Shown: positions 675 through 48,002 of the stretch, in pieces
Layout: each line of letters opens with the position of its first letter
Position numbering within the stretch: position 1 is the first letter of the stretch
Position numbers and translations under genes: made by a program
Notes under the pieces: model-generated
What the model was told of the DNA's origin: nothing
Seen by the model: only the letters and a program-made list of their open reading frames with translations
Databases searched by the model: none
NCBI GenBank assembly: GCA_001972305.1
Contig: BDDD01002385.1
Location: 91,991-155,990 of the forward strand
Source: Cephalotus follicularis
Lineage: Eukaryota; Streptophyta; Magnoliopsida; Oxalidales; Cephalotaceae
Direction of reading: 5' to 3'
DNA: 64,000 nt

Positions 675-880
675 CAGTCGACTGCCCATATGAACAGTCG
701 GCTGTTTAGTTTAAGTAGTTGGCTGTTTTGTGCAACAGTCGACTGTTTTGTGTTGAGTAGTCGGCTGGACCCCTGATTCAGTTGACTGCCTGCAGTCCAA
801 GTTGAGTAGTCGACTGGCCCTGTTGTGTAGTCGACTGCCACTCCTTGGACAGTCGACTGGATTCCTGAAACAGTCGGCTG
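675..880. repeat. Phased palindrome array in LTR C (10 sites)
   Basis: There are ten copies or close variants of CAGTCGACTG. The dyad centres lie at about 679.5, 699.5, 720.5, 740.5, 762.5, 783.5, 811.5, 832.5, 854.5 and 875.5, giving steps of 20, 21, 20, 22, 21, 28, 21, 22 and 21. The sequence between sites differs from gap to gap. The single 28-bp step falls between sites 6 and 7, as in the 5' LTR of F. Confidence 0.9.
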
Positions 881-4173: not shown

Positions 4174-5769
4174 TCAAACCATGTCTAACAAAGTCCGATT
4201 CCTCCTTTCGGATACACCATTATGCTGAGGTGTTCCAGGAGGAGTCCACTGAGATAGAATTCTGTTATCTCTAAGATAACCTAGGAATTCAGCTGACAGG
4301 TATTCTCCACCTCGGTCCGACCGAAGTATTTTAATGGATTTACCTGTTTGTTTTTCTACCTCAAGTCTGAAATCCTTAAATTTCTCAAAGGATTTCGACT
4401 TGTGTTTCATCAGATACACATAACCATACCTAGATAAATCGTCGGTAAAGGTTATGGAGTAGATATAACCACCTCGCGCACTGACTGACATAGGACCACA
4501 TACGTCAGTATGGACTAAGCCCAGTAAGTCCATAGCCCTTTCTCCTTGACCAGAGAAGGGTGATTTGGTCATTTTTCCCAATAAACAGGATTCACAAGTT
4601 GGATAGGACTCTAAGTCCTGGATATCAAGAAGATCATCCTTAACCAACTGTGATAGTCTAGCATCACTAAGATGACCAAGTCTACAATGCCAAGTATAGG
4701 TTTTATTTAACTCTGTTTCTCTTTGTCTTTTCTTATTATTACTTTGCTCAATGGACAAGATATTTGATTGTGAAGTATTTAAGACATATAATCCATTGTC
4801 GATAACACCATTACCAACATAAACATTGTTTGAATATATAAGACATCCAGTGTCTTGGAACCTAAGCTCCAAGCCCAAACTACATAAGTGAGAAACACTC
4901 ACAATGTTCCGAACAATATTCATAACATAATAACAAGGATCCAATGTCAAAATAAAATTATTACACAAACTAATATCATAAACACCAACAACTTGAGCAA
5001 TGATCCTAGATCCATCGCCAAGCCTCAAGTCCAGGTCTCCAGCTCCAAGCTTTTTAACTTTTCTTAGTCCCTGCAATGAATTGTAAAGGTTAGTTCCACA
5101 TACAGTATCTAATACCCATGAAGAACTACTATTCAAAGCTAGATTAAGTTCAATCATGAACATACCTAATGTACTCGCACCATGCGGGTTACCAGTAGAG
5201 ACAACAGCAACAGCAACACGACAATCCTTTTTCCAGTGCCCGGTCTTACCGCACTTGAAACAAGCACCTTCAGCAGCTAACTTCTTCATCCGATCTTTGG
5301 CAACATTCCCACTAGCTCCAAGCTTCCCCTTCTTCTTCTTTTGCTTCTTCTTACCCTTGCCTTTTGTATTGACAGGCATTAGCACGCCCTTCCCTTTACA
5401 GGAAGATGAGGCACTACCCTTTCCTTGGGCAGACCTAGAAGAAGGAAGAAGTAGGGAGTGGGTCTTTGACTTCCCAGAGTCAAAATCGGCCTCAGCCGTC
5501 CTCAACATAGCAACCAGCTCAGATAGAGTTACCTCTATCTTGTTCATGTGAAAGTTCACCAAAAACTGTGAGAACGACTTAGGAAGTGACGTCAGAATAA
5601 GATCTACATATAGATCATGGTCCATGACAAACCCTAATTGAGCCAGCTGCTCAATCATGTCTATCATCTTTAATCCATGCTCATGGACTGAAGCTCCCTC
5701 TTGCATATGAGCCTTGAAGAGTTTGCGAGATAGATTAAACCTTTGAGTCCTAGACTCAGCTCCATACAT
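4174..5769 (-). pseudogene. Copia gag C-terminal part, protease and integrase remains (element B)
   Basis: The open stretch is 531 codons. In order it holds the gag helical region (about residues 1-95), a lysine-rich segment, one CCHC zinc knuckle (CFKCGKTGHWKKDC, near residue 170), a protease-like region around WVLDT, and integrase. The integrase part starts with the HHCC zinc region (HCRLGHL, CESCLLGK) and continues into the catalytic core (HTDVCGPM, DDLSRYGYVYLM, SDRGGEYLS). In the family gag packages RNA, protease cuts the polyprotein and integrase inserts the cDNA. It is one piece of a broken polyprotein. Confidence 0.9.
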
Positions 5770-5772
5770 CTC

Positions 5773-6072: not shown

Positions 6073-7880
6073 TCTAGCAACCTAGATAAGGAAATATAAG
6101 CATGAGTTAGCATTTATTCTAATTTTAATATATGATAACCATAACACTTGGTCTTTAGTGCTTATGGTTCCTCCCACTATTCTAATCGTATCCCATACCC
6201 CCATATGGAACTCGAGAAGTCTAACTTCCTAGTGGGGATTGGAATCCATCGCAATCATATTATAGCCTCAGCTAGCGCATGACAAACTATAATATATCCA
6301 ATGGGTAGGCTATCTTTCCAATTTGTATCCAATACAAGATGCAATCATAGTATTCGGCCTTAGATTCAATATGGCCGCAGCTAGGGCATGACAAACCATC
6401 AGAATCTTAATAAGTCAAGTACCCACAATTTTCATTGGAATGCACTAGTTTTAACATCCACACGTAGGCATGTCCAAGTGCTAAAACATAGACACCCTTT
6501 GCGGTGCCCAACACCGACGTTGACATAATATTCCCAAGTCATCAGCCTCAGCTAGGACATGACAAACCAAGAACCCAGGAACACTACTCAACGAAAATTG
6601 TGGAAGGCCACGGGGAACCACTCCATGGGTTCCTACGTTAAGACTTATTATTAAAGTGGGGGAATTTGTGGTCTCATGTTTTAATTACCAAGCCATTAAT
6701 TAATTCATTGGTTGTATTAGCCAATTCCAATTAATTATGGCTTATCAAGCAAGACATGTATCTTATGCACCTTTGACATATTTCTAAAATATGTCAATGG
6801 ATTGGCCAGGACATTATTAGTAGTGACATGAGCCCAAAGTCACTACTAGGTCTTCCTAGGTGTAGCGATTTAAATCTATTTATTACAACAATAACCATGC
6901 ATACATGGCCTTCAAAAGTCTTGTGCTCCATTTCTCCTTTCCTCCATCTCTCCTTGTAAGGTCTTCTTTTACATAAAGAACTTTACATTTTTGAAAGAAA
7001 AATTACATTTAAAAATACAAGGAAAAATTACAAATGAAAGGAAAAATAAATGGTGCACGTAGGCACCTTATTACAAACCTTTAAAATAATAAATAAATAA
7101 ATCCATCCACACAAGAAAAACCACAAACTAGGTCTACGTCCTTATTGGGCCATCCATTGTGCATAAGACTTATATAATATCCAATATTATAAAGCACAAA
7201 TAAAACAAATGCCATAAATAATAACCAATCATACAATTTAATTTAAGGATTGTTAACTGATCAAAACTCCCACTAAATCAAGCATTGATATTTGATTTTC
7301 TAAGTGCCAAAATGTATAAAATCCAATTTTATTAAAAACCGTTTTTTTATAAAGACGTCGACGCTTCCCAGAAGGCGGCGATGCATTTTATGAAAACTAC
7401 TGAAAAAGGCGTCGATACATAACACGAGCATCAATGCGTTTCTCAAGAACTGTTTGAAAAAGGCGTCGACGGTAATCAAAAACAACGACGCTTTTCCTGG
7501 AAACGATGAACAAGGCATCGACGTCTATCAAGAACGTCGACGCGTTTCCTGGAAAGATGAACAAGACATCGACGTTTATTAAGAACGTCGACGTCTATAG
7601 CCCCCTGGACAGTTTCTGCATTTCAAAAAATGAAGAAAAATAATGGTTTAGACTTTGGCATTCCTATCTGGTAATCCAAACTGCACTATGCATGTTTCAA
7701 ACATAATTCTAAACACATTATATCCAAATCACTAGGTCAAAAACACAATGAAATCCAATTTCATGCAATTTTCACTAAGGCACTTTGAAAATCTATTTTG
7801 ATCATAAAACACATCCATTAATTAAACCATTAATCAGTACATCATCCAAGGCATAAATTCAATCAAGGATGATGTGGGAC
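6073..7880 (-). other. Leader of copia B between primer site and gag
   Basis: About 1.8 kb without a coding signal. It contains three loose copies of a motif like CAGCTAGGGCATGACAAACC (near 6270, 6375 and 6548) and a block at about 6160-6245 that is strongly similar to the leader of copia M near 50800-50883. A phased palindrome array lies at 7355-7594. A leader of this length is long for copia. Packaging or translation signals are possible but not shown. Confidence 0.65.
7355..7594. repeat. Phased palindrome array in the leader of copia B (10 sites)
   Basis: The sites are variants of GACGTCGACGC. Centres lie near 7359.5, 7379.5, 7413.5, 7432.5, 7467.5, 7486.5, 7519.5, 7538.5, 7570.5 and 7589.5. 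Steps alternate: 20, 34, 19, 35, 19, 33, 19, 32, 19. The sites therefore come in pairs about 19 bp apart, with a pair-to-pair period of 51-54 bp. Confidence 0.85.
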
Positions 7881-15208: not shown

Positions 15209-15567
15209 TGTAACGCCCCGAATTTCATAAATAATTATTATGAAATTGGTGCGTGTACGATCGTAATAAAATCGATAGAGGCCCGGAGTAATGAAAAGGC
15301 ATTACACATTTAAGTCGTAATTGTGTTAGCCAAAACAGCTAATAAAGCCAATTTTTAATGCGCGACAATAAAGCCCAAATGTTCGAAATATTATTGCGAT
15401 TATTTTGGTGGCTGTTCGGATAAATTATGTCGCGATTCGCGGAAAAATCGGGACCCAGACCTTAGTATTTTGCCAGTAAATACTAAAGAGAAAGCAATTT
15501 GCATAAAGTGAGGGAGAGAGAGACACGGGCGCATCACGCGCCCGTGCAAGAGAGAGGCAGCGGGCGC
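15209..15567 (+). repeat. 5' LTR of G, first segment
   Basis: Starts TGTAACGCCCCG. It ends with GGCGC (15563-15567), the target duplication of F, and continues at 25205. Confidence 0.85.
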
Positions 15568-15816
15568 TGTAATACCCTGCTTGTTCGTAAATGTTTTTAC
15601 GGACTTTTTATGTGTTCGTTTCGGGATTTTAATTCGTTTAATTTTAGGTCCGGTTGCCCTACGTTTTCGGCCTATGTGATTTGGGCTGTCTTATATCAGC
15701 CTAAATATTTTGATATGTTATTGCTATGTGGGTTGGGCTTATAGTTATTAATTCTATTTTATCAAAACTTTATTTCAATTTTATAACTTTTTAACATTAT
15801 TAAAACAATTCATTTC

Positions 15817-15843
15817 ATTATTATTATTATTATTATTATTATT
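15817..15843. repeat. (ATT)n microsatellite in F 5' LTR
   Basis: About nine ATT units. The matching site in the 3' LTR (22967-22987) has about seven. Confidence 0.9.
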
Positions 15844-16701
15844 TTCTTTATCTTTGTCTTTTATTCTTTCCATTTCTTCCTTCTTTCCTTTCTTTCTTCT
15901 TCTTTCTCCTGAACTCTCTTCTCCCTTCATTACTTCCACACGGCAACAACCATTCTTTCCTTTCTCTTTCCCTGGAAATCCTCTCTTCTTCCCTTTTTGG
16001 CAGATTTTGTCTCTTTGTTTCCTTTTTGTGAGAGACATTGTCATTATTATATGATTGCCTCTCCCTTCTGTGAAGTCACTGCCGAAGTTAGAAGTGAGAA
16101 TTTCTGTGTTCTTGTGGTTGCTGTGTTCTTCATCAAATCAGGTTTGATTGTTATCCCTTGTTGTCTTTTGATCATATTTCCTTGGCAAGCTTTGAGTTGT
16201 GTTGTTTGCTTTCTTTGATTTCTTGTTGTCCAGCCGTTTTACAACTGTTTCGTAGTGTTCTTCCTGCCATTACAGTATCTATTAAACCATTGAAGGTTAG
16301 TTAATTCGTTCCCTACAGTGATGGTTTTGTTTCAAAGTTATAATGTCAGTTTTATATTCCTACTGTTCTTTGGTTTCAATTCCTAAGTTAATATGTTCTG
16401 TCATTATGTTGTTAAGACTGTCAACATGTTTTATACACCTTGAACATGTCATAATATAGTTTTAAGGTCTGCAAATTATAGTGGACAGAAATCTGGACAT
16501 ATATGTATGCATGTTTTCTTGTCTTCCTTAGAAGTTAAGCCACTGTCTATCTGTTTCTATGTCAATTATGTGTTCCTGAATCACCTAAATGCCATATTAT
16601 GTCTTATAATTGTGTCCATGTGTCTCTGGTTTAGTGTTGTACTCGTTTGAATCAGTTTCTATATCAAAATTATCATGTTGCTGTTGTTCTGTCATCCAGA
16701 A

Positions 16702-16907
16702 CAGTCGGATGTTCTTGTGGACAGTCGACTGGATTGGATGTGCAGTCGACTGCCATATGAACACAGTCGACTGTCTTGGGTTGAGTAGTCGACTGGATCT
16801 ATGAACCAATCGACTGCCTGCATTCTGGTTTGAGTAGTCGACTGGCCCTTGTGATTTGTCGACTGCCAAGCTTCCCCAGCCGGCTGGTGCTCTGTAATAG
16901 TCGACTG
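16702..16907. repeat. Phased palindrome array in F 5' LTR (10 sites)
   Basis: CAGTCGACTG and variants have centres at 16706.5, 16726.5, 16747.5, 16768.5, 16790.5, 16811.5, 16839.5, 16860.5, 16881.5 and 16902.5. Steps are 20, 21, 21, 22, 21, 28, 21, 21, 21. The gaps between sites have no common sequence. The layout matches array C, including the one 28-bp step. Confidence 0.92.
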
Positions 16908-17656
16908 TTTTGCCCAGAAATGTACTGTTTTCAATTGTTTTGATCCGTTTGTTCCTCAAATCGATCCGAGTTTCTTCTAAACACTGTTACGATCACCTCT
17001 TTATAGCGAAGTATAAATGAGTTGATGATTTGGGTTATGAAATGTATGTTATGATACCGTTGTGAGTGGTTTTCCGATATGTTTTGTGAAAGCATACTTT
17101 ATGTGGTTTTAAATCGATGTTTTCGCAACGATTGAATACTGAGTATTGTACCCACCTATGGGGTGTACCATAGGCACGTCGTAGGCCTGGCACAGGGACG
17201 TGACACTTCCGTAGCGGTGTGATTAGTCTACGGCGTCTCTGAGTGTTATGAATAAATCCCATGAGGTGGATTTATGGATCCGCTATGTATGATAGAGGTG
17301 TATGAATCGATTATAGTATATGATATGTGATCTGAGGTGTGATCAGATATGTGATATGTGAGAATTGACTTGTGTAGTGCCGTACACTTCAATTCTAGTG
17401 GGCATGTGGAATTAGCGCCTCCCTTGCCAAATATATGTTCTGTGGTATGTATGTGGCTCAGTATGACCTATGATTCGTAAATGATTTTGTGAAATGTTTC
17501 GTAAATGTTTCAAAGGTTATATGGACTTATGAAAATTACAAATGTGATTTTATGATTATTTAATTTTTTTAATTACTTAAGATTTCTATTACGTTATTAT
17601 TGGAATCTTACTGTTTTTAAATTTATCGTTTACTGTTTTTATTTCCCTTATCCGTA

Positions 17657-17694
17657 CTGAGGTTTGCTCAGCCGGGTTTTTGTTTCCATGCGGC
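17657..17694 (+). other. Double inverted repeat in F 5' LTR
   Basis: CTGAG-GTTTG-CTCAG is followed by a second stem closing at GCGGC, 308 bp before the LTR end. The 3' LTR copy is at 24854-24891, also 308 bp from its end. Confidence 0.6.
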
Positions 17695-18007
17695 AGGTTA
17701 TCGGGAGCAGCGGGGGAATGTGTGAACGAGAGATGACCACCCTATGTGTTTGGATCCCTAGGAGTGTGATCCCTATGTTATCTCTAGTGGTTATAAACAA
17801 TGATACTTAAGTTTTTATGTTTTAATTTAGAACTTGAATATGTTTTAAGTCTTTCGGGAAATATTTAATTGCTAAGTTTTAATGTTTCAGTTATGATTAG
17901 ACTGCCACGTTTTTGGATAATAAAGTAATGATTTGATTATATATGTTATGATAGGTTCCGTATTATGACCCGTAACGACTCCTGCCGTCCGGGGGTGTTA
18001 CAGATTT

Positions 18008-18018
18008 TGGTATCAGAG
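18008..18018 (+). other. Primer-binding site of F (initiator tRNA-Met)
   Basis: TGGTATCAGAG lies five bases after the LTR end at 18002. Confidence 0.9.
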
Positions 18019-18171
18019 AATAGGTTTTGTTTCCTTAGAAGACCTAACTAGGTTTGACCTGTGAGATTGGGTAGACACTGGGTTAGGCTTTTCCGTTATG
18101 GTTTTATGATATGTTTTCTGTTTCGGTTTTTATTCCTTGTGATATTTTATGTTTTGGGTGCCTTTTCGTAG

Positions 18172-19250
18172 ATGGCACGTACAAGGAACGCTGCTCGAAG
18201 GACTGCACCCGTGGAGGCTCAGGGAGTCAGAAATGAGCCTACTATGGAGGAATTGGTACGTCAGGCAGTCGCTTAGGAGGTACGACGCGTGTTAAGTGAG
18301 CAGAATCGGGATCAGGGCCGTAGGGAGCCGGTTGTTAAGGCGGATGCTCCAGCTGATGTTCAGATGGGAAGTGAAGCTGGGGGCAGGACTGACACACCTA
18401 CTTATATTTGGCCTGAGCGGTTCCAAAAGCAGAGACCGCAGTCTTTCAGCTCAGCCATGACTCCTGTGGAGGCTGAGCACTGGATTGCTCATATGGACAA
18501 GATCTTCGATGTGCTTGGATGTAGTGACGAGCAGAAGATTAAGCTAGCTGTTTACAAGCTTGAGGGTGATGCTCAAAAATGGTGGAAGGCTGTGGATTTG
18601 GCTAAGGGTGGTAGTTATGTGGAGACTTTGACCTGGCCCGAGTTTCGCGAAGTCTTTTATCAGCAGTACTTTCCCACCGCTGATAAGGAGGCTTATGCCA
18701 GGGAGTTCATCAACACCGGACAGAAGGATGGAGAATCGGTCACGGAGTTTTTGACCCGATTCACTAGGCTTGCTGGTTTTGCTGGGTCCACAGCGGGGAC
18801 AGCATTGGAGCAGGTAGAAAAGTTCAAGTGGAAGTTACACTATCAGCTCTGGGGTAAACTGATCAACACCAGGTTTGCTGATGTTTCTGAAGTGGAAAAT
18901 GCAGCGAAGAACATAGAACTGGAAAGGTTAGATTTCTAGGAAGCCCGTCAGGAAAGTGACAGGAAGAGAAACAGAGGAGATTCTCAAGGGCAAGGTTCTG
19001 GACAAAATTATAAGAATAGAAATGGCAAGCGTGGGAAGAGGAATGATAACTGGGGACAGCAACAGCCCGGTAATGACCAGAGGCAGACACAGGGAGCTGC
19101 GGATGTACAGATCGCCAAGTGTGATGTTTGTGGTAAACAGCATCCGGTGGGAGTGTGCTACAAGGCTATCGGGGCCTGTTTTGTGTGTGGTCAGAAAGGG
19201 CATTTCGTGAAGGATTGTCCTGACCCTCGTGCGAAGGAAAGGAAGGGGAA
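18172..19250 (+). pseudogene. Gypsy gag remains (element F)
   Basis: The likely start is the ATG at 18172 (MARTRNAARRTAP). The gag core has LGCSDEQKIKLAVYKLEG, the DAQKWWKA motif and EFREVFYQQYFPTADKEAYAREF, which is the plant chromovirus Retrotrans_gag domain. Zinc-knuckle sequence CDVCGKQHPVGVC and CFVCGQKGHFVKDC follows near 19,110-19,220. In the family gag forms the particle and binds RNA. It is broken; H carries a close relative (40440-41604). Confidence 0.85.
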
Positions 19251-19268
19251 CAATGCAGACAGCGCAAT

Positions 19269-19694
19269 ATGGGAGGTCGTGTTTTTGCTATCATGACTCA
19301 GCAGGCTGCTAATACACCAGGTACTGTTTCAGGCTTTATTTCTGTTGGTAACCGTAGGGCTTATGTTTTGTATGATACTGGATCGACCCACTCGGTTGTA
19401 GCGAGGTCTTTTGTTCGGCACCTTGGGATGTCTTCACAGTTGCTTGATCCAGCTTTGGTTCTTTCGACCCCTACGGGTTCTTCTGTTGTCATATCTGAGT
19501 GTTTTTATGCTTGTCCTCTTGTTTTCGATGATCGGGTTCGTGATGCGGATCTTTTGCCTATCGATATGTATGACTTCAATATGATTCTGGGTATGAACTG
19601 GTTGGATCGTCATCGGGCTACGATTGACTGCTATGCTCGGAGGGTTCTGTTTGGGGATGTGAACAGTCCTGATTTTGTTTATCAGGGTTCATGA
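19269..19694 (+). pseudogene. Gypsy aspartic protease remains (element F)
   Basis: YDTGSTHSVVARSFV near residue 37 is the aspartic protease active-site motif, and ILGMNWLDRHRATIDC near residue 105 is the conserved second half. In the family it cuts the polyprotein. It directly precedes RT, as in gypsy elements. Confidence 0.88.
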
Positions 19695-19706
19695 CTGAGG
19701 AAAGAA

Positions 19707-20978
19707 GTGAAGGTTATATCTGCTCTGAAAGCTCAGAAATTGGTAGCTAAGGGCGCTAAAGGTTTCTTAGTTGTTGTGAAGGATGTCTCAAAGGTAGAGC
19801 CTTGCCTTGAAGACTATCCTGTGGTTAGAGAATTTTCTGATGTGTTTCCGGAGGTGTTACCGGGTTTGCCACCACAACGGGAAGTGGAGTTTACCATCGA
19901 ACTCATTCCTGGGGCGGCATCTTTATCTAAGGCACCTTACAGAATGGCACCGTTGGAACTGCAAGAGTTGAAGGAACAGTTGCAAGAGCTGTTGGATCGG
20001 GGTTTCATACGGCCTAGTGTTTCGCCGTGGGGTGCTTCGGTTCTTTTTGTGAAGAAGAAAGACGGGTCTATGAGGTTATGCATAGACTACAGAGAATTCA
20101 ACCGGATTACTGTTCAGAATAAATACCTGCTACCTAGGATTGATGACTTGTCTGATCAACTCCAGGGTGCTCGGTGTTTCTCTAAGATCGATTTGAGATC
20201 GGGGTATCATCAGCTTCGTATAAAGGATGAAGATGTGCCTAAAACTGCTTTCCGTACTCGGTATGGGCATTATGAGTTCCTGGTGATGCCTTTCGGACTC
20301 ACTAATGCACCGGTAGTTTTCGTGGACCTGATGAATAGGGTTTTCCATGAGTACTTGGATCAGTTCGTGATTGTCTTCATAGATGACATCCTCGTGTATT
20401 CCAAGTCGAAAGAAGAACATGAAGAACAGCTTCGCATTGTATTGGGTATTCTAAGAAAGAATCAGTTATATGCGAAGTTTTCGAAGTGTGAGTTCTGGTT
20501 GGAACAGGTGGCGTTTTTGGGTCATGTGGTTACAACTGAAGGTATCAGTGTGGATCCTGCTAAAGTTGAGGCTATTACTAAATGGCCGAGACCTACCACA
20601 GTGACGGAGGTTCGGAGTTTCTTGGGTTTGGCTGGATATTATAGGAGGTTTGTGGAAGGCTTCTCCTCTATAGCCTTACCACTAACTCAGCTTATGAGAA
20701 AGGGAGCTAAGTTTGAATGGAACGCAGAGCGTGAAGCAAGCTTCGAGAAACTGAAAAATGGTCTTGTGTCGGCACCGATTCTTCGTTTACCATCTGGGTC
20801 TGGTGGATACCATATTTACAGCGATGCTTCTAAGAAAGGTTTGGGATGTGTTTTGATGCAACACAGTCATGTGATAGCTTATGTTTCGAGACAGTTGAAG
20901 CCTTATGAGGTAAACTATCCTACGCATGATCTTGAGTTGGCAGCAGTAGTGTTTGCATTGAAGATCTGGAGGCACTAG
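19707..20978 (+). pseudogene. Gypsy reverse transcriptase and RNase H start (element F)
   Basis: Conserved RT blocks appear in order: [35 protein letters not shown], the [12 protein letters not shown] block, the polymerase motif [11 protein letters not shown] and [15 protein letters not shown]. RNase H then starts with [15 protein letters not shown] and [18 protein letters not shown]. The length and order are as usual for chromovirus pol. The stretch is one piece of a broken polyprotein. Confidence 0.9.
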
Positions 20979-21530
20979 TTGTACGGAGAAACTTGTGACG
21001 TCTTTACTGATCATAAGAGTCTCAAGTACATCTTTACGCAGAAGGAGTTGAACATGCGTCAGAGAAGGTGGTTGGAACTTCTGAAAGACTATGACCTGAA
21101 CATTCAGTACCATCCTGGTAAAGAAAATGTGGTAGCGGATGCTCTTAGTCGGAAGAGTTCTGGGAGTGTAGCGGCTTTGCTTACTCAGCCGCAGTTGATA
21201 GCTGATATGGAGCGGATGGATTTACATCTATATGTTCGGGGTTCTGAAGGTTGTGTTGCTGCAATGAATGTTGAGCCTACTCTTATATCTCAGATTAAGA
21301 CATCTCAGAGTGATGATGGTGAGCTGTGGGCCTTAGTCCAGAATGTTGAAAAGGGTAAGCAATCAGAGTTTCGTATGGATGACCATGGCGTGATATGGCT
21401 GGGTAATCGGTTGTGTGTTTCGTCAGATTCTTCTATCAGAGATGCTGTTATGTCTGAGGCACACAGTTCTCCATTTTCTATACATCCGGGTTCTACGAAA
21501 ATGTATAGAGACTTGAAGAAGAACTTCTAG
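20979..21530 (+). pseudogene. Gypsy RNase H end and integrase zinc region (element F)
   Basis: [20 protein letters not shown] and [16 protein letters not shown] are the end of RNase H. After a linker, [19 protein letters not shown] is the integrase zinc-binding start. It belongs to the same broken pol as its neighbours. Confidence 0.88.
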
Positions 21531-22717
21531 TGGAATGGAATGAAAAGGGATGTAGCAGAGTACGTTGGGAAGTGTTTGATCTGCCAGCAGGTAAAGATTG
21601 AGCACTAACGTGCTAGTGGTTTGTTACAACCCTTAGAAGTACCGGTATGGAAATGGGAGAGTATTTCGATGGACTTTGTGACGGGTTTACTGAGAACTTT
21701 CAGGAGGAACGATGCTATCTGGGTAGTAGTGGATCGATTGACTAAATCGGCTCACTTTTTGGCTATCCGAGAGGACTTTTCTGTTGATCGTTTGGCTGAG
21801 GTGTTTCAGCAGGAGATAGGGTGACTACATGGGACTCAGGTATTAATTGTTTCGGATAGGGATCCTCGTTTCACTTCATGGTTTTGGAAAGGGTTCCAGA
21901 AAGCTTGGGGTACTAGGCTCAGTTACAGTACAACTTTTCATCCACAGACAGATGGGCAGACTGAGAGAACCATCTAACCATCTAGACCTTAGAGAATATG
22001 TTGAGGCCTTGTACCTTGGAGTGGACTGGGAGATGGGATGAGTATTTGAGCTTGGTAGAGTTTTCCTACAATAACAGTTGGCATGCTAGTATCGGTATGG
22101 CTCCGTTTGAAGCTTTGTATGGGAGGAAGTGTCGTGCTCCGACATGTTGGGATGAGGTTGGAGAGCGAGTTATTGAGGGACCCGAGCTAGTGCAGGTCAC
22201 TACGGAGAAAGTGGCTATAGCAAGGGAGAGACTGAAAGCGGATCAATCTTGACAGAAGAGTTATGCGGACAGACATCGGAGGGACTTGGAGTTCAAGGTA
22301 GGTGAACATGTGTTTTTGAAAGTTTCACCTTGGAAAGGAGTCCGACGTTTTGGGCTGAAAGGAAAGTTGAGTCCGCGGTTTATCGGGCCTTTCGATGTTC
22401 TGGAGAAGAGTGGCGCGGTTGCTTATCGGTTAGCTTGGCCTCCGCAGTTAGCACATGTCCATAACATGTTCCACGTGTCTTTGCTGAGAGGTTATCAGTA
22501 TCATCCCCTACATGTGGTTCACTATCCGTTGGACCGTATTTGAGAGGACCTATCTTGTGACGAGGAGGCCGAGGCTATTCTGGATTGACAGGAGCGAGTT
22601 ACGCGTAACAAGACCATTTCTTTTGTGAAGGTTCTGTGGAGGAATCATCCCGAATGTGAGGCTACTTGGGAGCTCGAGAAGCATATTCGGGAGCGTTATC
22701 CGCACTTATTCGGGGGA
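21531..22717 (+). pseudogene. Gypsy integrase core and C-terminal remains (element F)
   Basis: Several stretches carry integrase blocks: [62 protein letters not shown], then SPWKGVRRFGLKGKLSPRFIGPF and a chromovirus-like end ERYPHLF. The 3' LTR begins almost at once after this end, and no clear purine tract is seen. It is decayed, with several breaks. Confidence 0.85.
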
Positions 22718-23535
22718 TGTAATACCCTGCTTGTTCGTAAATGTTTTTACGGACTTTTTATGTGTTCGTTTCGGGCTTTTAATTCGTTTAATTTTAGGTC
22801 TGGTTGCCCTATGTTTTGGGCCTATGTGATTTGTACTGTCTTATATCAACCTAAATATTTTGATATGTTATTGCTACGTGGGTTGGGCTTATAGTTATAA
22901 ATTCTATTTTATCAAAACTTTATTTCAATTTTATAACTTTTTAACATTATTAAAACATTTCATTTCATTATTATTATTATTATTATTTTCTTTTATCCTT
23001 TTCTTTTATTCTCTCTATTTCTTCCTTCTTTCCTTTCTTTCTTCTTCTTTCTCCCGAACTCTCTTCTCCCCTCATTACTTCCACACGGGAACAACCATTC
23101 TTTCCTTTCTCTTTCCTTGGAAATCCTCTCTTCTTCCCTTTTTGGCAGATTTTGTCTCTTTGTTTCCTTTTTGTGAGAGACATTATCATTATTATATGAT
23201 TGCCTCTCCCTTCTGTGAAGTCACTGCCGAAGTTAGAAGTGAGGATTTCTGTGTTGTTGTGGTTGCTGTGTTCTTCATCAAATCAGGTTTGATTGTTATC
23301 CCTTGTTGTCTTTTGATCATATTTCCTTGGCAAGCTTTGAGTTGTGTTGTTTTTGTCTTCCTTAGAAGTTAAGCCACTGTCTATCTGTTTCTATGTCAAT
23401 TATGTGTTCCTGAATCACCTAAATGCCATATTATGTCATATAATTGTGTCCATGTGTGTCTGGTTTAGTGTTGTACTCATTTGAATCAGTTTCTATATCA
23501 AAATTGTCATGTTGCTGCTGTTCTGTCATCCAGAA

Positions 23536-23720
23536 CAGTCGGCTGTTCTTGTGGACAGTCGACTGGATTGGATGTGCAATCGACTATCTTGGGTTGAGTA
23601 GTCGACTGGATCTATGAACCAGTTGACTGCCTGCATTCTGGTTTGAGTAGTCGACTGGCCCTTGTGATTAGTCGACAGCCAAGCTTCCCCAGTCGGCTGC
23701 TGCTCTGTAATAGTCGACTG
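23536..23720. repeat. Phased palindrome array in F 3' LTR (9 sites)
   Basis: Centres lie at 23540.5, 23560.5, 23581.5, 23603.5, 23624.5, 23652.5, 23673.5, 23694.5 and 23715.5; steps are 20, 21, 22, 21, 28, 21, 21, 21. Compared with the 5' LTR there is exactly one site fewer, and the phase of the rest is kept. Confidence 0.9.
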
Positions 23721-24853
23721 TTTTGCCCAGAAATGTACTATTTTCAATTGTTTTGATCCGTTTGTTCCTCGAATCGATTCGGGTTTCTTCTAAACACTGT
23801 TATGGGTCTGTATAATGTTTCTGATGTGTCTTAGACTCTTATACGTATGGCTTTGGTGTCTTTTAGATTGTTGTGCCTCAAGTGGAGTTTGTTTTAAATC
23901 ACCTATCCGTAAGTACATTGTGAACGCATAAGGTACGGATCTTCGTTTCTTGATACCCTCCTATCAGTTTTACTGTAGTAAGTAAAAGATATTTTTACTT
24001 TGTGAATAATGTACGGATTTCTATTGTTTCCTTGGCTATCTAATATTTCGAACTGAAAACAGTTTTGCTATGCTTCTTCGTTTATGAAATTGATAATGTT
24101 TTTGACATGTTTCAAAAATGAAGTTGGTTTGACATTTTTAAATGATTCTGACTTTATGCATATGATATGAAATGATACGATATGTTACGATCACCTCTTT
24201 GTAGCGAAGTATAAATGAATTGATGATTTGGGTTATGAAATGTATGTTATGATACCGTTGTGAGCGGTTTTCCGATATGTTTTGTGAAAGCATACTTTAT
24301 GTGGTTTTAAATCGATGTTTTCGCAACGATTGAATACTGAGTATTGTACTCACCTATGGGGCGTACCATAGGCAAGTCGTAGGCCTGGCACGGGGACGTG
24401 ACACTTCCGTAGCGGTGTGATTAGTCTACGGCGTCTCTGAGTGTTATGAATAAATCCCATGAGGTGGATTTATGGATCCGCTATGTATGATAGAGGCGTA
24501 TGAATCGATTCTAGTATATGATATGTGATCTGAGGTGGGATCAGATATGTGATATGTGAGAATTGACTTGTGTAGTGTCGCACACTTCAATTCTAGTGGG
24601 CATGTGGAATTAGCGCCTCCCTTACCAAATATATGTTATGTGGTATGTATGTGGCTCAGTATGACCTATGATTCGTAAATGATTTTGTGAAATGTTTGGT
24701 AAGTGTTTCAAAGGTTATATGGACTTATGAAAGTACAAATGTGATTTTACAATTATTTAATTCTTTTAATTACTTAAGATTTCTGTTACATTATTATTGG
24801 AATCTGACTACTTTTAAATTTATCGTTTACTGTTTTTATTTCCCTTATCCGTA

Positions 24854-24891
24854 CTGAGGTTTGCTCAGCCGCGTTTTTGTTTCCATGCGGC
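24854..24891 (+). other. Double inverted repeat in F 3' LTR
   Basis: CTGAG-GTTTG-CTCAG, then GCCGC, a 14-base loop and GCGGC. Both stems are perfect here. Confidence 0.65.
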
Positions 24892-26272
24892 AGGTTATCG
24901 GGAGCAGCGGGGGAATGTGTGAACGAGAGATGACCACCCTATGTGTTTGGATCCCTAGGATTGTGATCCCTATGTTATGTCTAGTGGTTATAAACAATGA
25001 TACTTATGTTTTTATGTTTTAATTTGGAACTTGAATATGTTTTAAGTCTTTCCAGAAATGTTTAATTGCTAAGTTTTAATGTTTCAGTTATGATTAGACT
25101 GCCACGTTTTTGGCTAATAGAGTAATGATTTGATTAGATATGTTGTGATAGGTTCCGTATTATGACCCGTAACGACTCCCACCGTCCGGGGGTGTTACAG
25201 GCGCTCCGTGCGCCTGCGCCAGAGAGAGAGCGAGAGAGAGTGGGAGAGAGATCGGAGCAGAGGGAGAGAGAGCGCGCCAGAGCCAGCCACCGGACCGGGA
25301 GAGCACAGCGGTCAACCCAGGCATGCCACCTACCGGTTACCTCCTCCCCTTTCTTCTCTTTTCTCTTCTTTTTCTTCTTGTCCCCCGCCACTGTCGCGCC
25401 TCTTCCCGGCATTTCCCGGTGCCGTTAGCGTCGCGGATGGAGGGGGTTTTCATCTAGAAGACACGCTCTTCCCATTTTGACCACCGGTGAGGCGTGATTC
25501 GGCCATATTCCGCCGGAATCAGTTGACTCAGTTGACTCAGTGACTCGACTCACTGTCACCTGAGACCGCGTGTTTGGCGCCGAGTCTCGGCGAGTCATGG
25601 GCAGTGACGCGTAGGATTGGTCAATGTGTGACATTTTTGGGTGGTGATCGGACTTGTTGAGGTCCGGCGAGTCGACTCAGTAAGTCGCAACTCGCTGCCG
25701 GCCATGGTGCGACATTCAGCGCTGATTCCTGGCGAGTCTTGACCGGTTTTGAGTAGACCATTCAATGTGGAACCCATTGATGGGTGTTTCACCGCCTGGT
25801 TGTGTCGGTCGGAATCCGGCCGGCGTTTCGGCGACGGAAATGTTTTGTGTGTCGAACATAATGGAAATGTGTTGTATGTGCAGTGTGTGAGTGGCAATTG
25901 GATTTGGTATTGAGGGACTTGATTAATCGATAAGAACCAGCTTTGGTTCAACGGTTATAGAAAAGGTTCGGCAATTGAACGTGCAGCTCGACTGTACGGT
26001 TGTTACTGCTGTAACAGGTAGGGGATTTTATAAATGTTGTTTGAGTTCAATTATAATAAATGTTCCTTGATGAAATGCGTGCATATCGTGTCTTGGAATG
26101 ATTGTGGGCTGTGCATTGTGAATTGTGTGACTGTGTTAGGGTTGCTATGAATAGTTAACCCGCTATGCATATTGTGTTTTACGATGATTGTAGATCGGAT
26201 TGCATCTATTGTATGCCTTGAACTTGATCGGTTTTGAGACGTGTCGAAGGAACCATGTTTTGGTTCGCTTAA

Positions 26273-26764
26273 CCGTCGACGCTTAGGAAAGAAGCGTCAA
26301 CGCTATAGATTGTTATACAGAGAATGAGTCCTGGTTCACAATAAATGTCGACGCTTTGAGATAACGTCGACGCTATGATTCGTTGTGTTTTAGAATGGAT
26401 CGTTGTGAGTTGTGGCTTTGTTTTGCTGTTGTTTTTCTACACTCTCTGCTGAATCCAGCCGACTGTCCAAGAGGACAGCTGACTGCTCGAGTGCGCCAGT
26501 CGACTGTTCGGTATGAACAGCCGACTACTCAATGGATCCAGCAGACTGTGCTTGGGAGCCAGTCGACTGTCCATGTGTGTTACTGAGAAATGCCTGCAGA
26601 TGCTTGAGTAGCCGACTGCTGTAGGCCAGCGGCCGACTGTTGGGTATAAACCGCCGATTGTCAAGGATGACAGCCGACTGTCGAGTGTGGGCAGCCGACT
26701 GCCAGTTTAGGATAGCCGACTGTTGAAGGAAAACAACCGACTGTCAGTGAGGGACAACCGATTG
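26273..26764. repeat. Phased palindrome arrays in LTR G (4 + 14 sites)
   Basis: First set (GTCGACGC type): centres 26277.5, 26298.5, 26349.5 and 26368.5. Second set (AGCCGACTG / CAGTCGACTG type): centres 26460.5, 26480.5, 26501.5, 26522.5, 26543.5, 26564.5, 26613.5, 26634.5, 26655.5, 26675.5, 26696.5, 26717.5, 26738.5 and 26759.5. Steps are 20 or 21 throughout except one of 49 (28+21) after site 6, the same place where C and F have their 28-bp step. Confidence 0.9.
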
Positions 26765-31191: not shown

Positions 31192-31484
31192 GCATCAACG
31201 TGTTCTTCGTGAGCGTTGATGTGTTCTTGAGTGCCCAGAGCGTCGATGCCATATGTCTTTCTTCAAGTTTGCGTGCTCACTACCATGCTGCGTGAAAGCG
31301 GTAAGGGGAAAATGGACATAAGCGTCGATGCTTTCGGTAAGCGTTGACGCCTTATGTGTTATGATCAGTTAATGCTTAGCGCATGCGTCGACACCTAAGG
31401 CAAAAGCCTTAACCGTCGACGCCTATCGTAAAGTGTCGACGCTTAGGCTTTACGCGTCGATGCCTAGACTTTACGCATCAACGC
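31192..31484. repeat. Palindrome array in E 5' LTR (about 11 sites)
   Basis: GCGTCGACGC variants have centres near 31196.5, 31217.5, 31244.5, 31326.5, 31345.5, 31370.5, 31389.5, 31417.5, 31437.5, 31458.5 and 31479.5. Most steps are 19-21 or 27-28. The counterpart in the 3' LTR is at 36114-36410. Confidence 0.8.
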
Positions 31485-34560: not shown

Positions 34561-37500
34561 TGTAATGCCCGAAATTTCATAAATAATTATCGTGAAACTG
34601 GCACAGTGTATGGCCGTAATGAGTCGATGGAGGCCGAATCAATAAAAGGCATTGCGCATTGAAGCCCGCAATTATAAGGCCCAAAAAGGCCAATAAAGCC
34701 TATTTTAAATGTGCGACAGTAAGACCCTATGTTCTTATTATTATTGCCATTATTTTAGTGGCCGTTTGGATAATTAATATCGCAGTGCGAGGAATAAACA
34801 GGTCGCGGGCCTTAATATTTTGCTGGTAAATTCTAATAAAGAAAAGGGCGAGAAGCAAATAAGAAGAGAGAGAGAGGGAGAGGGAGCACGGGCGCATAGC
34901 GCACCCATGTGAAAGAAGAAAGACACGGTAGTGCGAGAGAGAAAGGGAGAGGCCCTGAAGATGACGCCAGAGAAGACGCCGAAGCTAGCCACCGAACCAG
35001 GAGAGGATGGCGAGCAGCCCAGGACCTCCACTCAACGGTAACTCCTTCTTCCTCTTCTCTTTTCCTTCTTTTCTTCTCTTCTCTCTCCCCGACTCTGTGC
35101 TCTTCGGTTGTGCGATTTTGCTACCGTTGGCATCACGGATGGAGCGGGTCTTCGTTTAGAAGGCCATCTCTACCTGTTTTGACCATTGTTGAGGTGTTTA
35201 TTAGCCTGAATCGGTCCGAATCAGTTGACTGAGTCAACTCAGCCATTCCGACTCACTGTCGCCTGTGATACAGGGTTTGGCACCGAGTCATGGCGAGTCT
35301 CGACCACCAACGGATTAATCGCAAGATTTGGTGGTGAACGGTGGCTTGACCGAAGCTTGAGCGACCTGTCCAGTGCTCTGGCGAGGCGAGTCAGCGCCGA
35401 TTCTTGGTGGGTCTCCGTTAGAGTCATGTCGAATGGGCCTCGTGGATGCTTGTTCATGAAATGGCCAGAATTGTGGATGATCGACGAGTCGACTCAATGA
35501 GTCGAACTCACTGCTAGCCGTGACAGCCCGTTTCGTGGTGAGTCACAGCGAGTCTCCGACAACATTATATAGATTGGCCAATTCATAGCCTTTTTATGGC
35601 GTGGCCAGAACTCCATGGTGATGGCCGGAATCTGGCCTGAGCTCCGGTGATGGTAGTGTGTTACTGCCTATGTGTAGAGTGTAACAAAAATATGTTGTAT
35701 ATGCAGGGTCAAGAAAACGGCCAAAGATAAAAGGTTTTCGTGCTCAATTGCTAAGACGTAGGTTATACTATTGGTTACATTCATGCATTTTGAATGGATT
35801 GTATGAACTTGACTGTTCATTGATGATTGTGTGCTAAATGGATGGTTATGGTTATGCATGATTTCCTGGTTTATGGTACAAGGTAGGGTTAAACGGAGGG
35901 AAATGGAGATTGAATGGAAATCGGAGAGTTTGAGATTTTTTACCCATTCTCCATTTTCTCTTAATCTAAGGGTTATGGATATGGTTTTTAAAGGGTTTTA
36001 AATCTGGTTTTCTATTTTAATTGATGGGTGAAGCTTATAGCTTCCTTTGATTTGAATTTTAACAGATATAAACCAGTTTTCATGGATTTTCACATTGCTA
36101 ACTGTGGCCCATGGTGTCAACGTGTTCTTCGTGTGCGTTGACGTGTTCTTGAGTGCCCAGAGCGTTGACGCCATATGTGTTTCTTCGCTTTCGCGTGCTC
36201 ACTAGCATGATGCGTTAATGCGGTAAGGGAAAAAGGGACATCAGCGTTGACGCTTTCGGTAAGTGTTGACCCCTTATGTGTTATGAGCAGTTGACGCTTA
36301 GAGCATGCATTGACGCCAAGGCACAAAGCCTTAACCGTCGACGCCTAGCGCAAAGTGTTGACACTTAGACTTTACGTGTCGATGCCTAGACTTTATGCAT
36401 CAACGCCTAAAGTCCATGTTTTGTTTAGCCAAAATTTATGGTTTTCAACCCAAATGACTTCCTTTCCAAAGAGATTCCATGGGAAGCCTCCCTAAGGCCG
36501 CGTTGCCTGTGGAAATCCTAGTTTAACACTTTTAAACTACGGATCAATATTCAAAATGAATCTTTAATAAAGTTTCATAAAGATGGGGTTTTATACAAAT
36601 TGTTTTCAAGAATGGTTAGGGTAGCTCAGTTGGGACATCCAGACATGGACATCCTAATTAGACTTCCTTTCCATCGTTTTATGGATTTTGAAATGATTTT
36701 CAATCTCAGTTGGGATATCTGGACGCGAATATCATAATTAGACTTGTTTTACAACTCTGATAGGGACCAACTAAAAGGGAAATGGTTTATGGTTATGGAA
36801 AAGGGTTATGGAAAGGGTTATGGCTATGTAAAGGGTTTTTAAGTGGTTTTGACAGATGGATCCTATGTGGTCCTTTATGGTGGGTCCCTATATTTTAAAT
36901 TGAATATAGTTATGGATTATGGGTAGGGTACGGCTATGGCTGTTGATTGTTTTGGTTTGAGACCTTGCGGGAAAACCCATTCATAATCTTCATTTCGTCA
37001 TGAAGAATTATGGATCTAGGCCACATGTTAGGGTATCCTCCTTTGCTAGATGACCGCCGGGCATCACTGCATTGTTGAGTGACATGGTTACGGTAGACTT
37101 GCTGAGCTCCTTCGGGATTAAGTCGTGGGTCCGTTAAGGAGCTAGTACCTTTGGGACTAGTATTATCAGGTGGATCGTCCAGGTCTCCTTCGTGGTAGAT
37201 CGTACAGGTCCCTATCAGGGGCAAGTACTTTCCTGACTAGTATTATGGTTATCGGTGGATCGTTTAGGTCTCCTTCGTGGCAGATCGTACAGGTCCCCTC
37301 AAAGGCTAGCACCTTCGGGTGTAACCATTATGGTATGGACATGTGGCCAGTGCCATCCTATGCTCCACCTGGCACGTGGCACGGAGAGTGTATGGTCGGT
37401 GGAGGTATTATCTCGGGCTGAAGAGGTAGAGAAGTACTTGACCCTATGGATTGATTGTTCTCATGGTATGGTTATGGATGGTTTTGTGGAGTGTCTGCAG

Positions 37501-38964: not shown

Positions 38965-39167
38965 GTCGGCTGACATAGTTTTAGGTCAGCTGACAAGTTC
39001 ACCGTCAGCTGACATAACGTATCCGTCGGCTGATGAGTTTGACCCAACTTAGTTCAGCTGACACTGTCCCCAGGTCAGCTGACACGTTCCGTTTTGTCAG
39101 CTGACAAAGTGTTCCGTCAGCTGATGAGTTTCGGACTGTCAGCTGACAAATTTACCTGTCAGCTGAC
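38965..39167. repeat. Phased palindrome array in LTR H (10 sites, GTCAGCTGAC type)
   Basis: Centres lie near 38969.5, 38989.5, 39008.5, 39029.5, 39057.5, 39078.5, 39100.5, 39120.5, 39142.5 and 39162.5. Steps are 20, 19, 21, 28, 21, 22, 20, 22, 20. The palindrome differs from that in F, but the spacing rule, with a single 28-bp step, is the same. Confidence 0.9.
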
Positions 39168-46277: not shown

Positions 46278-47062
46278 GGGTCGATCATTTCCTTTAACAG
46301 TCGATTGTTTCCTCTAGCAGTCGTCTATCTCCTAGAGCAGTTGTAACACCCGGTGTTTTTCTGTATGTAATATTTCGAATTATGATGTAATCTTAAATTT
46401 GGAATAATGAGAATGTTGAGTTTTGGACTCAAAAGTATGCTTAAAACCCTATTTATGGTCTTTGAGCACGGAGGTTTAAAGAGAAGACTTATTATTTTCT
46501 CTTATTTTAGGTTATGGAACATTTATCATGTTATTTGGTTTTTGTAACATTGGATATTTGTTATCTTGTACCGTATTGTTTCACGCTCCGTTTTGGGCAA
46601 TCGACAGTTGTACCTGGAGATATTTATATTTGTGGGCATCACGTAGTATGGGATGCGTGATGTGTTTTACTTCGGCTTATTTTTGTATGCTCCCGCAAAT
46701 TGATGAAGGATTTTGAAAGTTTTAAATTTATGAATTGTATAAGCCGGATTCATATGTTGATTGCCGTACCACTTTCTATGTTGTTTATGTCCTGCGGAAA
46801 CGGGGTGTGACAGCAGTCGACCGCTTTCCTTCAGTAGTCACTGTTCTGGGCTGAGTAACATACGAGCAGTCAACTATTTTCCCTCAACAGTCGACTGTCT
46901 CTATGAAACAGTACATAAACGATTCTCCCAGTAGTATCTTCCGGTCGTATCTAGGCAAAATAATAGATGCACAGTCGACTGTTTTCCTTTAACAGTAGGC
47001 TATCTACCGTGAACAATCGGCTATTTTCCTCCAACAGTCGGCTATTCTGAGGAACAGTAGTA
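46278..47062. repeat. Palindrome array in LTR J, split by R
   Basis: CAGTCGACTG variants have centres near 46282.5, 46302.5, 46322.5 and the site split by R (46341/46818). They continue at 46839.5, 46871.5 and 46892.5, and again at 46976.5, 46997.5, 47018.5, 47039.5 and about 47060. Most steps are 20-21 bp. Confidence 0.8.
46342..46812 (+). mobile_element. Element R: short solo LTR of the A/K family, inside J's array
   Basis: It starts TGTAACACCCGG and ends GGGGTGTGACA, flanked by GCAGT (46337-46341 and 46813-46817). Its first 90 bases resemble LTR K (59413 onward) and LTR A. At 471 bp it is a short form. The target duplication is itself half of a palindrome site of J's array. Confidence 0.85.
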
Positions 47063-48002
47063 TGCAAACCATTCTATTTTATCTAGACAGATTATCGTAA
47101 GCTAATCAACCATATTCATGTAACAGAATATCATCAATGGTCATCATATGGTCTACAGAACACAACCATCATGCATGCATTTCACCAAATGAACCATTAC
47201 TATAATGGAACTCAAATTATAATTATAAAGTCCCTACCTTAGATTCCAAGTTAGGAATCGAAGTCCACCGCTTTAAGCTTCACGACCAGTAGCTTTTGAG
47301 CTCCCCAGGTTCAGTACTGCAAGCTCCAATCCCGTCCAACTCCAAGCTTTCCAACAATGGATAATGGTTTCTCTCTTTCTCTCCCTACTTTTCTGGTTTC
47401 CATTGTGTTTCTCTTTAACTCCCTGTTCTTTTCTTTGTCAGGTGTTGGGTGAGAGAGATAAGGAAGAGAGTTTTATGCAGATGGTCTTCTCTCTCTTTCC
47501 CTCCCAACTCGTTTTCATGGCGCCCAATTGCCATACTCTTCCTTTTTCCATCAGTTTGCATGCGCCACATGGTTCAACTCCACTTCCATCCCGCCTGAAT
47601 GGAGCACAAGTGGCATTTTCTTTCCTTTCTTTGGTGGCATGACGCACAGGTGGCATCCTCTTCCTTCCCCTCAGTTGCTGCATGTGATCACGTAACATGT
47701 TGTTCGGACAGAGTGTCATCCAGTCGACTGTTCTTCTCTAACAGTCGACTGTTTACTCAAACAGTCTCTCAGTCGACTGTTTTATTCGACAGTCAGTTGT
47801 TTCCCCCAAGAATCGATGCTTTACCCTTGGCGTTGATGCTTTAGGCGCAGTCTTCCATAATTCAACTCATTATAACAGTTCTCAATACTTTTCACTCAAG
47901 ATTAAACATTTCAAGATGGGAAATTTATAATCTTCATTTACTCATGATAAATTTACATTGAGAATTACAACAATACAATGAAGAAAGTTTCCGTGCATTA
48001 CC
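46818..48002 (-). repeat. LTR J, right-hand segment
   Basis: LTR sequence between R and the right end. It includes pyrimidine-rich sequence around 47360-47640, in which open frames are chance, and a second palindrome set at 47721-47799 (centres 47725.5, 47746.5, 47774.5, 47794.5). No gene is seen. Confidence 0.7.

What the first reader, a model, noticed from the sequence alone, without database searches (positions are those of the whole stretch)
16702..16907. 21-bp-phased palindrome arrays in LTRs: an undescribed-looking cis element
In F's 5' LTR ten CAGTCGACTG-type dyads have centre steps 20, 21, 21, 22, 21, 28, 21, 21, 21, while the gaps share no sequence. A classic tandem repeat would conserve the gaps; here only the dyad and the spacing of two helical turns are kept. 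All sites thus face the same side of the helix, as expected for cooperative binding of a dimeric protein, nucleosome placement or a methylation-reading platform. Tandem enhancer motifs are known in the LTRs of tobacco Tnt1 and Tto1, but I know of no array with this palindrome, length and phasing.
Basis: partly seen in the sequence, partly recalled or inferred. Interest (0 to 1): 0.88.

Follow-up and report, generated by a model that had tools for sequence, protein, structure and literature searches.

The report
Two-turn palindrome arrays in plant LTRs
Several plant retrotransposon families carry, inside their long terminal repeats, rows of about ten 10-letter mirror-symmetric DNA words set about two turns of the double helix apart; the words are kept while the DNA between them drifts, which points to a protein-docking array and resembles a feature already described for another retrotransposon group.

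Summary
Window-wide, 58 of 103 adjacent dyad steps up to 60 bp are 19-22 bp, against a mean of 0.26 in 100 shuffles; nine are 27-29. F is a Ty3/gypsy element with a chromodomain match. Its 3' LTR and the E1, G and C LTRs carry the same design; C has another palindrome, GTCAGCTGAC, in an LTR otherwise related to F's. Between E1 and F3, dyads are 90% identical, gaps 58%, other LTR sequence 60%. Between F's own two LTRs dyads changed most: 8/90, gaps 1/95, rest 71/1912. So dyads seem kept by selection during retrotransposition, not by slow mutation. Unit gain or loss and weak gap homology in E1, G and C indicate growth by tandem duplication. Most likely: a docking array for a dimeric DNA-binding protein; that protein is unknown and binding untested. 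Family-specific palindrome clusters are published for Sireviruses (Ty1/copia; PMC2829016). Newer here are the Ty3/gypsy setting, the two-turn spacing and palindrome exchange. The 28-bp step means that not all sites share one helix face.

The parts
15568..18002 (+). 5' LTR of F (Ty3/gypsy element 15568-25199)
   Evidence: TG..CA ends, target duplication GGCGC 15563-15567 / 25200-25204, primer-binding-site match at 18008, LTR pair 80 of 2097 aligned bases different
16702..16907 (+). F 5' LTR array: ten CAGTCGACTG-type dyads, steps 20,21,21,22,21,28,21,21,21
22718..25199 (+). 3' LTR of F
23536..23720 (+). F 3' LTR array: nine dyads, steps 20,21,22,21,28,21,21,21; one 21-bp unit fewer than the 5' LTR
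675..880 (+). E1 LTR array: nine dyads with at most 2 mismatches plus one degenerate site (3 mismatches, about 720); 28-bp step between the same units as in F
26456..26764 (+). G LTR array: 14 sites, mostly CAGCCGACTG variants (position 4 T>C in 12 of 14), one 49-bp step where a site is lost, otherwise 20-21-bp steps
38965..39167 (+). C LTR array: ten GTCAGCTGAC-type dyads (6 exact), steps 20,19,21,28,21,22,20,22,20
31240..31484 (.). GCGTCGACGC-type cluster in the first copy of the H repeat pair (presumably an LTR); looser spacing, includes 19-21-bp and 28-bp steps
   Evidence: 8 sites, 4 steps of 19-22; layout
36135..36406 (.). GCGTCGACGC-type cluster in the second copy of the H repeat pair; only 1 step of 19-22 by the two-mismatch scan
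7355..7594 (.). CGTCGACG-type cluster (steps 19, 32-33, 51-54), partly a 52-bp tandem repeat; position relative to an LTR not settled
46867..47044. CAGTCGACTG-type cluster, five of six adjacent sites at 21-bp steps apart from one 84-bp step
47721..47779 (.). three exact CAGTCGACTG dyads at steps 21 and 28

Best explanation
Each dyad is a binding site for a dimeric, sequence-specific DNA-binding protein, probably of the host. Spacing of two helical turns lets neighbouring dimers sit side by side and bind together, and the array acts in cis within the LTR to drive the element's transcription or keep it open. Copies with intact arrays leave more offspring, so dyads are kept over cycles of retrotransposition, while an inserted copy loses them quickly. 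The array grows and shrinks by whole units; after duplication the gap drifts and the dyad is kept. Shown here: presence, spacing, dyad conservation between E1 and F, divergence of dyads after insertion, a one-unit difference between sister LTRs. Inferred: that selection is the cause, that a protein binds, that it is dimeric, that it acts on transcription or silencing.
For: Spacing class 19-22 bp far beyond shuffles. Dyads 81/90 identical between E1 and F3 against gaps 55/95 (P=7e-7) and other LTR 1232/2053 (P=7e-10); E1-F5: 86/100, 61/105, 1005/1672. Within F, dyads 8/90 changed against 72/2007 for gaps plus other LTR, so they are not slow to mutate; the two comparisons together reject equal constraint, P=2.3e-5. 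Same layout with a different palindrome in C, whose LTR start, an interior block and end match F's. Dyad symmetry strongest at positions 1, 3 and 4 from the centre, pooled 0.93, 0.91, 0.93 of 43 sites. Gap sequence adds nothing to sense-strand RNA folding in the four arrays tested, and two-turn spacing has a plain meaning in DNA. Host factors acting on LTR sites are known in ONSEN and Tnt1 (passages of PMC3907296 and PMC3316501).
Against: No binding, expression, methylation or nucleosome data. The 28-bp step (and C's 19-bp step) break a strict one-face rule; coherence at 10.5 bp is 0.30-0.63. In G the palindrome is broken at one position in 12 of 14 sites, always on the same side, which a symmetric dimer does not predict. 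Dyads can align to dyads by likeness alone, so E1-F identity may be raised. Only one LTR pair and one family pair carry the rate argument. No TATA box at a constant distance from the array, so a promoter-proximal role is not shown.
Confidence: 0.52

Rival explanations
1. The dyads work in RNA: neighbouring palindromes pair into hairpins, which feed small-RNA production or mark the transcript, as proposed for maize Sirevirus palindromes.
For: F5, E1 and C fold far below dinucleotide shuffles (-90.3, -95.5, -99.6 against -63.4, -60.2, -57.0 kcal/mol). Dyad changes in E1, F and C lean to C>T and A>G, which keep G-U pairs in the sense strand. PMC5311732 (passages) calls the palindrome-rich LTR regions of maize Sireviruses small-RNA hotspots with rapid evolution. 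G's antisense strand folds about 2.3 SD better than gap-shuffled controls (-125.9 against -114.9+/-4.7).
Against: Any self-complementary word repeated ten times folds; sense-strand energies of all four arrays equal those of gap-shuffled controls. G's prevalent form puts a C-A mismatch into the sense stem in 12 of 14 sites and G's sense strand is only about 1.8 SD below shuffles. Spacing of two DNA turns has no evident meaning for RNA. Whether the array is transcribed is unknown.
Confidence: 0.16
2. An ordinary decaying minisatellite without function: a 21-bp unit amplified and the dyad part is simply what is left.
For: Whole-unit difference between F's LTRs, unit differences between E1 and F; residual gap homology in E1, C, G; Tandem Repeats Finder reports parts of the E1, G and C arrays.
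Against: Neutral decay would wear dyads as fast as gaps; dyads stay at 0.82-0.91 identity between units while flanks are at 0.30-0.38 against 0.26 expected, and in F's sister LTRs dyads mutate more, not less. Bacterial 21-bp tandem repeats fetched as a contrast keep their gaps (flank identity 0.71-0.97 in six of the ten scored loci; the other four, rumen Bacteroidales hairpins, 0.33-0.40).
Confidence: 0.13
3. A DNA-shape or chromatin element: regularly set words place or exclude nucleosomes, or are read through their methylation, with no dedicated dimer.
For: Mean step of 20.86 bp is two turns at 10.43 bp; array spans 193-196 bp in F5, E1 and C; dyads in F are rich in CHG positions (31 of 90).
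Against: Nucleosome placement does not need a 10-bp palindrome kept letter by letter; C's dyad has no CG and H's has no CAG/CTG, so no methylation context is common to all.
Confidence: 0.12
4. The dyads are contact points for dimerisation or template switching of the genomic RNA during reverse transcription.
For: Palindromes can pair between two RNAs (general knowledge of retroviral dimer signals, recalled); unit differences between copies are seen.
Against: One or two palindromes would do; two-turn DNA spacing has no meaning in RNA; G's form pairs poorly with itself. Whether the array lies in the transcript is not known.
Confidence: 0.05

Closest known systems
Sirevirus repeated motifs (RM), Ty1/copia (Bousios et al. 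2010, PMC2829016: section 9 read whole, other passages seen)
   Same: Palindromic words, one per family, at least eight copies per element, clustered in the LTR; function proposed as cis-regulatory and untested; one (Tnd-1 ACAATCGATTGT) and another (Vitis CGGTCGACCG) have a TCGA centre.
   Different: Host lineage is Ty1/copia; most RMs have a CGG-CCG core; a TATA box follows the cluster in most. No fixed spacing is given in the text seen; 300-500 bp for clusters of mostly 8-14 LTR copies suggests a usual mean above 21 bp (my arithmetic).
Palindrome-rich LTR regions of maize Sireviruses as small-RNA hotspots (Bousios et al. 2016 Genome Res, not held; known to me from passages of PMC5311732)
   Same: Palindrome clusters in the LTR regulatory part that evolve fast between copies, like the dyads of F's two LTRs.
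   Different: Ty1/copia; spacing not described in what I saw; no small-RNA data here.
VANC target arrays of VANDAL DNA transposons (PMC5735166 and PMC10398659, passages)
   Same: Short motifs at high density in non-coding TE DNA, differing between related families, gained and lost by tandem repeats.
   Different: Motif is not palindromic and lies in one orientation; read by an element-encoded VANC protein. F's frames of 150 aa or more outside the LTRs are gag, protease, RT-RNase H and integrase parts; one 180-aa frame in the 3' LTR has no Pfam match.
Short interrupted repeat cassettes, SIRC (PMC10342631, passages)
   Same: Short repeats with unlike spacers, common in mobile elements, some with palindromes.
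   Different: 2-8 repeats of 10-29 bp, mostly without palindromes; no helical spacing in the passages seen.
Host-factor sites in LTR promoters: Tnt1 BII boxes (PMC3316501, passages), ONSEN heat element (PMC3907296, passages)
   Same: Cis sites in an LTR bound by host stress factors.
   Different: Ty1/copia; no ten-fold palindrome array in the passages seen.

Membership tests
Sirevirus RM | Host is a Sirevirus (Ty1/copia) | tested here: not met
   F has Retrotrans_gag, RVT_1 ahead of the integrase, SH3_Tf2-1 tail and a Chromo match (22.8 bits, below Pfam's 25.1 cut-off): Ty3/gypsy, chromovirus-like
Sirevirus RM | Palindromic word in at least eight copies, specific to the family | tested here: met
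   10 (F5), 9 (F3), 9 plus a degenerate one (E1), 14 (G), 10 (C) sites; C has its own word
Sirevirus RM | CGG-CCG core | tested here: not met
   Core is TCGA in F and E1, CCGA in most of G, AGCT in C; the published Tnd-1 also lacks it
Sirevirus RM | TATA box shortly after the cluster | tested here: inconclusive
   TATAAAT 110 bp after the last dyad in F5 but 495 bp in F3, none in E1 600-1300, no TATAAAT in the C stretch scanned
Sirevirus RM | Cluster borders a CpG island | not tested
   no call
VANC-type anti-silencing target | Element encodes the reading protein | tested here: inconclusive
   No frame of 150 aa or more in F outside gag-pol except a 180-aa frame in the 3' LTR without Pfam match; shorter or spliced genes not excluded
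VANC-type anti-silencing target | Motif arrays that change together between related families | tested here: met
   F and C: related LTR ends and interior block, different word in all sites of the array
Ordinary tandem repeat | Gaps homologous between units | tested here: inconclusive
   F5 1.4 SD above chance, E1, C, G about 3, 5 and 8 SD above chance but low
Array bound cooperatively by a dimeric protein | Palindromic sites at whole helical turns | tested here: inconclusive
   58 of 103 adjacent steps at 19-22 bp, but one step of about 28 bp per main array and low whole-array coherence at 10.5 bp
Array bound cooperatively by a dimeric protein | Demonstrated binding | not testable with these tools
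   Needs EMSA, DAP-seq or pull-down

The most novel reading that the evidence does not exclude
Different plant LTR retrotransposon families share one architecture, about ten 10-bp palindromes two helical turns apart with one 28-bp step, whose letters can be exchanged as a set while the layout stays. It would be a general docking platform that follows a fast-changing protein: a Ty3/gypsy counterpart of the VANC anti-silencing arrays, read by a host factor or by the element's own gag or chromodomain integrase.
Probability: 0.13. Interest if true: 0.85.

Novelty: new variant of a known kind. Interest (0 to 1): 0.52.

Why it matters
What lets plant retrotransposons with long LTRs be transcribed in spite of silencing is largely open. 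A countable, family-specific array gives a direct handle: the bound protein can be fished out, the helical-phase rule tested with half-turn inserts, and genome-wide LTR sets scored for array integrity against activity. It would also widen a feature that its describers called Sirevirus-specific (PMC2829016).

Tried and rejected
Relatives elsewhere: F's reverse-transcriptase frame in viral contigs gave no relative; a three-dyad pattern in viral contigs gave 0 hits; the same pattern in genome contigs gave 42 stretches, all titled as bacterial. That pattern allowed only 19-23-bp steps, so those hits say nothing about spacing.

RNA structure as carrier of the conservation: gaps add no sense-strand folding energy. 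Protein-coding repeat: steps of 20, 22 and 28 break any 7-codon frame. Methylation context as the shared feature: C's word has no CG, H's no CAG or CTG. TATA box close behind the array: its nearness in F5 goes with a 385-bp difference to F3, where E1 aligns with part of the F3 form. A likeness of the 28-bp-step gap in G to that of E1 and F (CCTGCAG, TTGAG) was seen by eye and not borne out by the gap comparison. A host-motif match (RCCGAC-like half sites in G) is recalled, from no call.

Rows handled specially: E1's third site (3 mismatches) was set at 719 and at 720, and was left out. G's lost site was set at 26592 and 26585 and left out. In one search, H5 was given as 8 of the 11 sites and H3 as 7 of the 12 sites that one search lists; M as 8 sites. 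In one search, 10 of the 42 bacterial loci were scored.

Full report
What is there. The window is packed with nested LTR retrotransposons of plant type; the species is not known to me. F is an element at 15568-25199: LTRs 15568-18002 and 22718-25199, TG...CA ends, target duplication GGCGC on both sides, primer-binding-site match at 18008, Ty3/gypsy gag, aspartyl protease, reverse transcriptase and RNase H, SH3-like integrase tail and a chromodomain match just under Pfam's cut-off. Stops break its frames. The two LTRs differ at 80 of 2097 aligned bases and by indels of 5, 311, 21, 385 and 1 bp.

The array. Number and spacing exceed chance. Window-wide the 19-22-bp class holds 58 of 103 adjacent steps up to 60 bp, with 9 at 27-29, and only 6 at 23-26 and 6 at 30-40. 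A search over all palindromic 8-mers that are not pure A/T returned seven clusters, all of these kinds; the H clusters did not pass its threshold.

More than one family. E1 and both F LTRs carry CAGTCGACTG-type dyads with the 28-bp step between the same units. G carries mostly variants of CAGCCGACTG (position 4 changed in 12 of 14 sites, three exact) at the same spacing. C carries GTCAGCTGAC (6 of 10 exact). C's LTR matches F's 3' LTR at the start (53 bp, 79%), at an interior block (76 bp, 86%) and at the end (78 bp, 72%), but no match falls in the array. F5 and C each have ten dyads spanning 196 and 193 bp with one 28-bp step, at different places in the order (6th against 4th step). So the words were exchanged as a set, or the array was rebuilt from another seed with the same layout. 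The GCGTCGACGC clusters in H are looser: 4 steps of 19-22 in one copy and 1 in the other.

Selection or mutation. Since insertion F's two LTRs drifted apart more in the dyads than elsewhere: 8 of 90 dyad bases against 1 of 95 gap bases (P=0.016); 71 of 1912 in the rest of the LTR (dyads against gaps plus rest P=0.019). Five of the eight lie in CHG context, where the rest of the LTR is also fast (14 of 122), so base context explains much of the excess (methylation not measured). Between E1 and F3, by contrast, dyads are 81/90 identical, gaps 55/95, other LTR 1232/2053; with F5 86/100, 61/105, 1005/1672. The within-F and E1-F3 tables together reject equal constraint (P=2.3e-5). The counts are small, from one LTR pair and one family pair, and dyads can align to dyads by likeness alone; but low mutability cannot be the cause of their conservation.

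How arrays grow. F5 has one 21-bp unit more than F3, and E1 and F differ in their first units. Gap similarity between units is marginal in F5 (0.267 against 0.242+/-0.018), weak but beyond chance in E1 (0.287 against 0.233+/-0.016), C (0.306 against 0.215+/-0.018) and G (0.355 against 0.261+/-0.012). The arrays look like old tandem duplications whose gaps were free to drift and whose dyads were not.

Helical phase. The mean of 37 steps of 19-22 bp in E1, F5, G and C is 20.86 bp, two turns at 10.43 bp. The 28-bp step turns the second block by about a third of a turn against the first, and whole-array coherence at 10.5 bp is 0.63, 0.62, 0.59, 0.30 and 0.36 in E1, F5, F3, G and C; with the period left free it rises to 0.84-0.91, near 10.3 or 22 bp. 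Two coherent blocks, then, not one face.

RNA. Dyads make strong predicted hairpins in E1, F5 and C, but gap-shuffled controls fold as well in all four arrays on the sense strand, and G's sense strand is only about 1.8 SD below full shuffles. Against my reading, G's antisense strand folds about 2.3 SD better than its gap-shuffled controls. Dyad changes in E1, F and C lean to C>T and A>G, which keep G-U pairs in the sense strand; G shows twelve T>C instead. I take the former for the T- and G-rich strand bias of the LTRs, without proof.

Where in the LTR. The first dyad lies 822, 1138 and 1365 bp from the LTR start in F3, F5 and C. A pyrimidine-rich stretch some 300-400 bp into the F and C LTRs, and a conserved block near the LTR end of F, E1 and C that resembles a branch point and splice acceptor, suggest that transcription may start upstream of the array and that it may lie in an intron (inference). 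It may instead be upstream of the start. This is open.

Known kinds. Section 9 of PMC2829016 (read whole) lists 13 Sirevirus elements with palindromic repeated motifs, 8-32 copies in all, one consensus per element, and calls the feature Sirevirus-specific, with its function untested. The kind is therefore known. Membership fails here on host lineage and on the CGG-CCG core; the TATA relation is inconclusive. VANC arrays (passages) change together between families as these do, but are read by an element-encoded protein for which I found no candidate gene of 150 aa or more outside gag-pol in F's internal part.

Verdict. A real cis array that the data here suggest is under selection; most likely a docking platform for a dimeric DNA-binding protein; a new variant of a known kind. 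Main weakness: a single window and no functional data.

Noticed in passing
L031:1969-2087, L038:6704-6844, L042:4412-4530, L012:3622-3740, L024:97-171, L011:955-1051: Rumen and gut Bacteroidales contigs carry 4-7 AGTCGACT words, mostly at 22-23-bp steps, with unlike gaps; five of the six fold into long hairpins around a central gap and L011 into a shorter one. Neighbouring frames tested are secreted-protein, SecA and peptidase genes. Not related to the plant arrays by anything shown.
   Followed up: partly
L002, L022 (Treponema MAG): 16 and 19 AGTCGACT words, nearly all at 21-bp steps, in ordinary tandem repeats with partly varying gaps.
   Followed up: partly
window 31394-31411, 36316-36333, 48486-48504, 48595-48613: In GCGTCGACGC-type clusters the 28-29-bp-step gaps are themselves inverted repeats, such as ctaaggcaaaagccttaa and ttaaggttccaaccttaac.
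   Followed up: no
window 17655-17712, 2035-2095, 39835-39890: Most conserved interior block shared by the F, E1 and C LTRs, like a branch point plus splice acceptor near the LTR end.
   Followed up: partly
window 26456-26764: In G the dyad is broken at position 4 (T>C) in 12 of 14 sites, always on the same side; in E1 and F the common single change is A>G at position 7, the other side.
   Followed up: partly
window 16208-16518 and 23798-24183: F's two LTRs differ by a 311-bp and a 385-bp stretch besides the 21-bp array unit.
   Followed up: no
window 22830-23372, plus strand: Open frame of 180 aa in F's 3' LTR with no Pfam match; not in the list of frames of 150 aa or more for the 5' LTR.
   Followed up: no
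window 2304-5772, minus strand: Ty1/copia element with RVT_2, integrase and gag domains next to E1's LTR end at about 2390.
   Followed up: no
window 39539-39563: Run of N (25 bases) inside the C LTR, an assembly gap or masked stretch.
   Followed up: no
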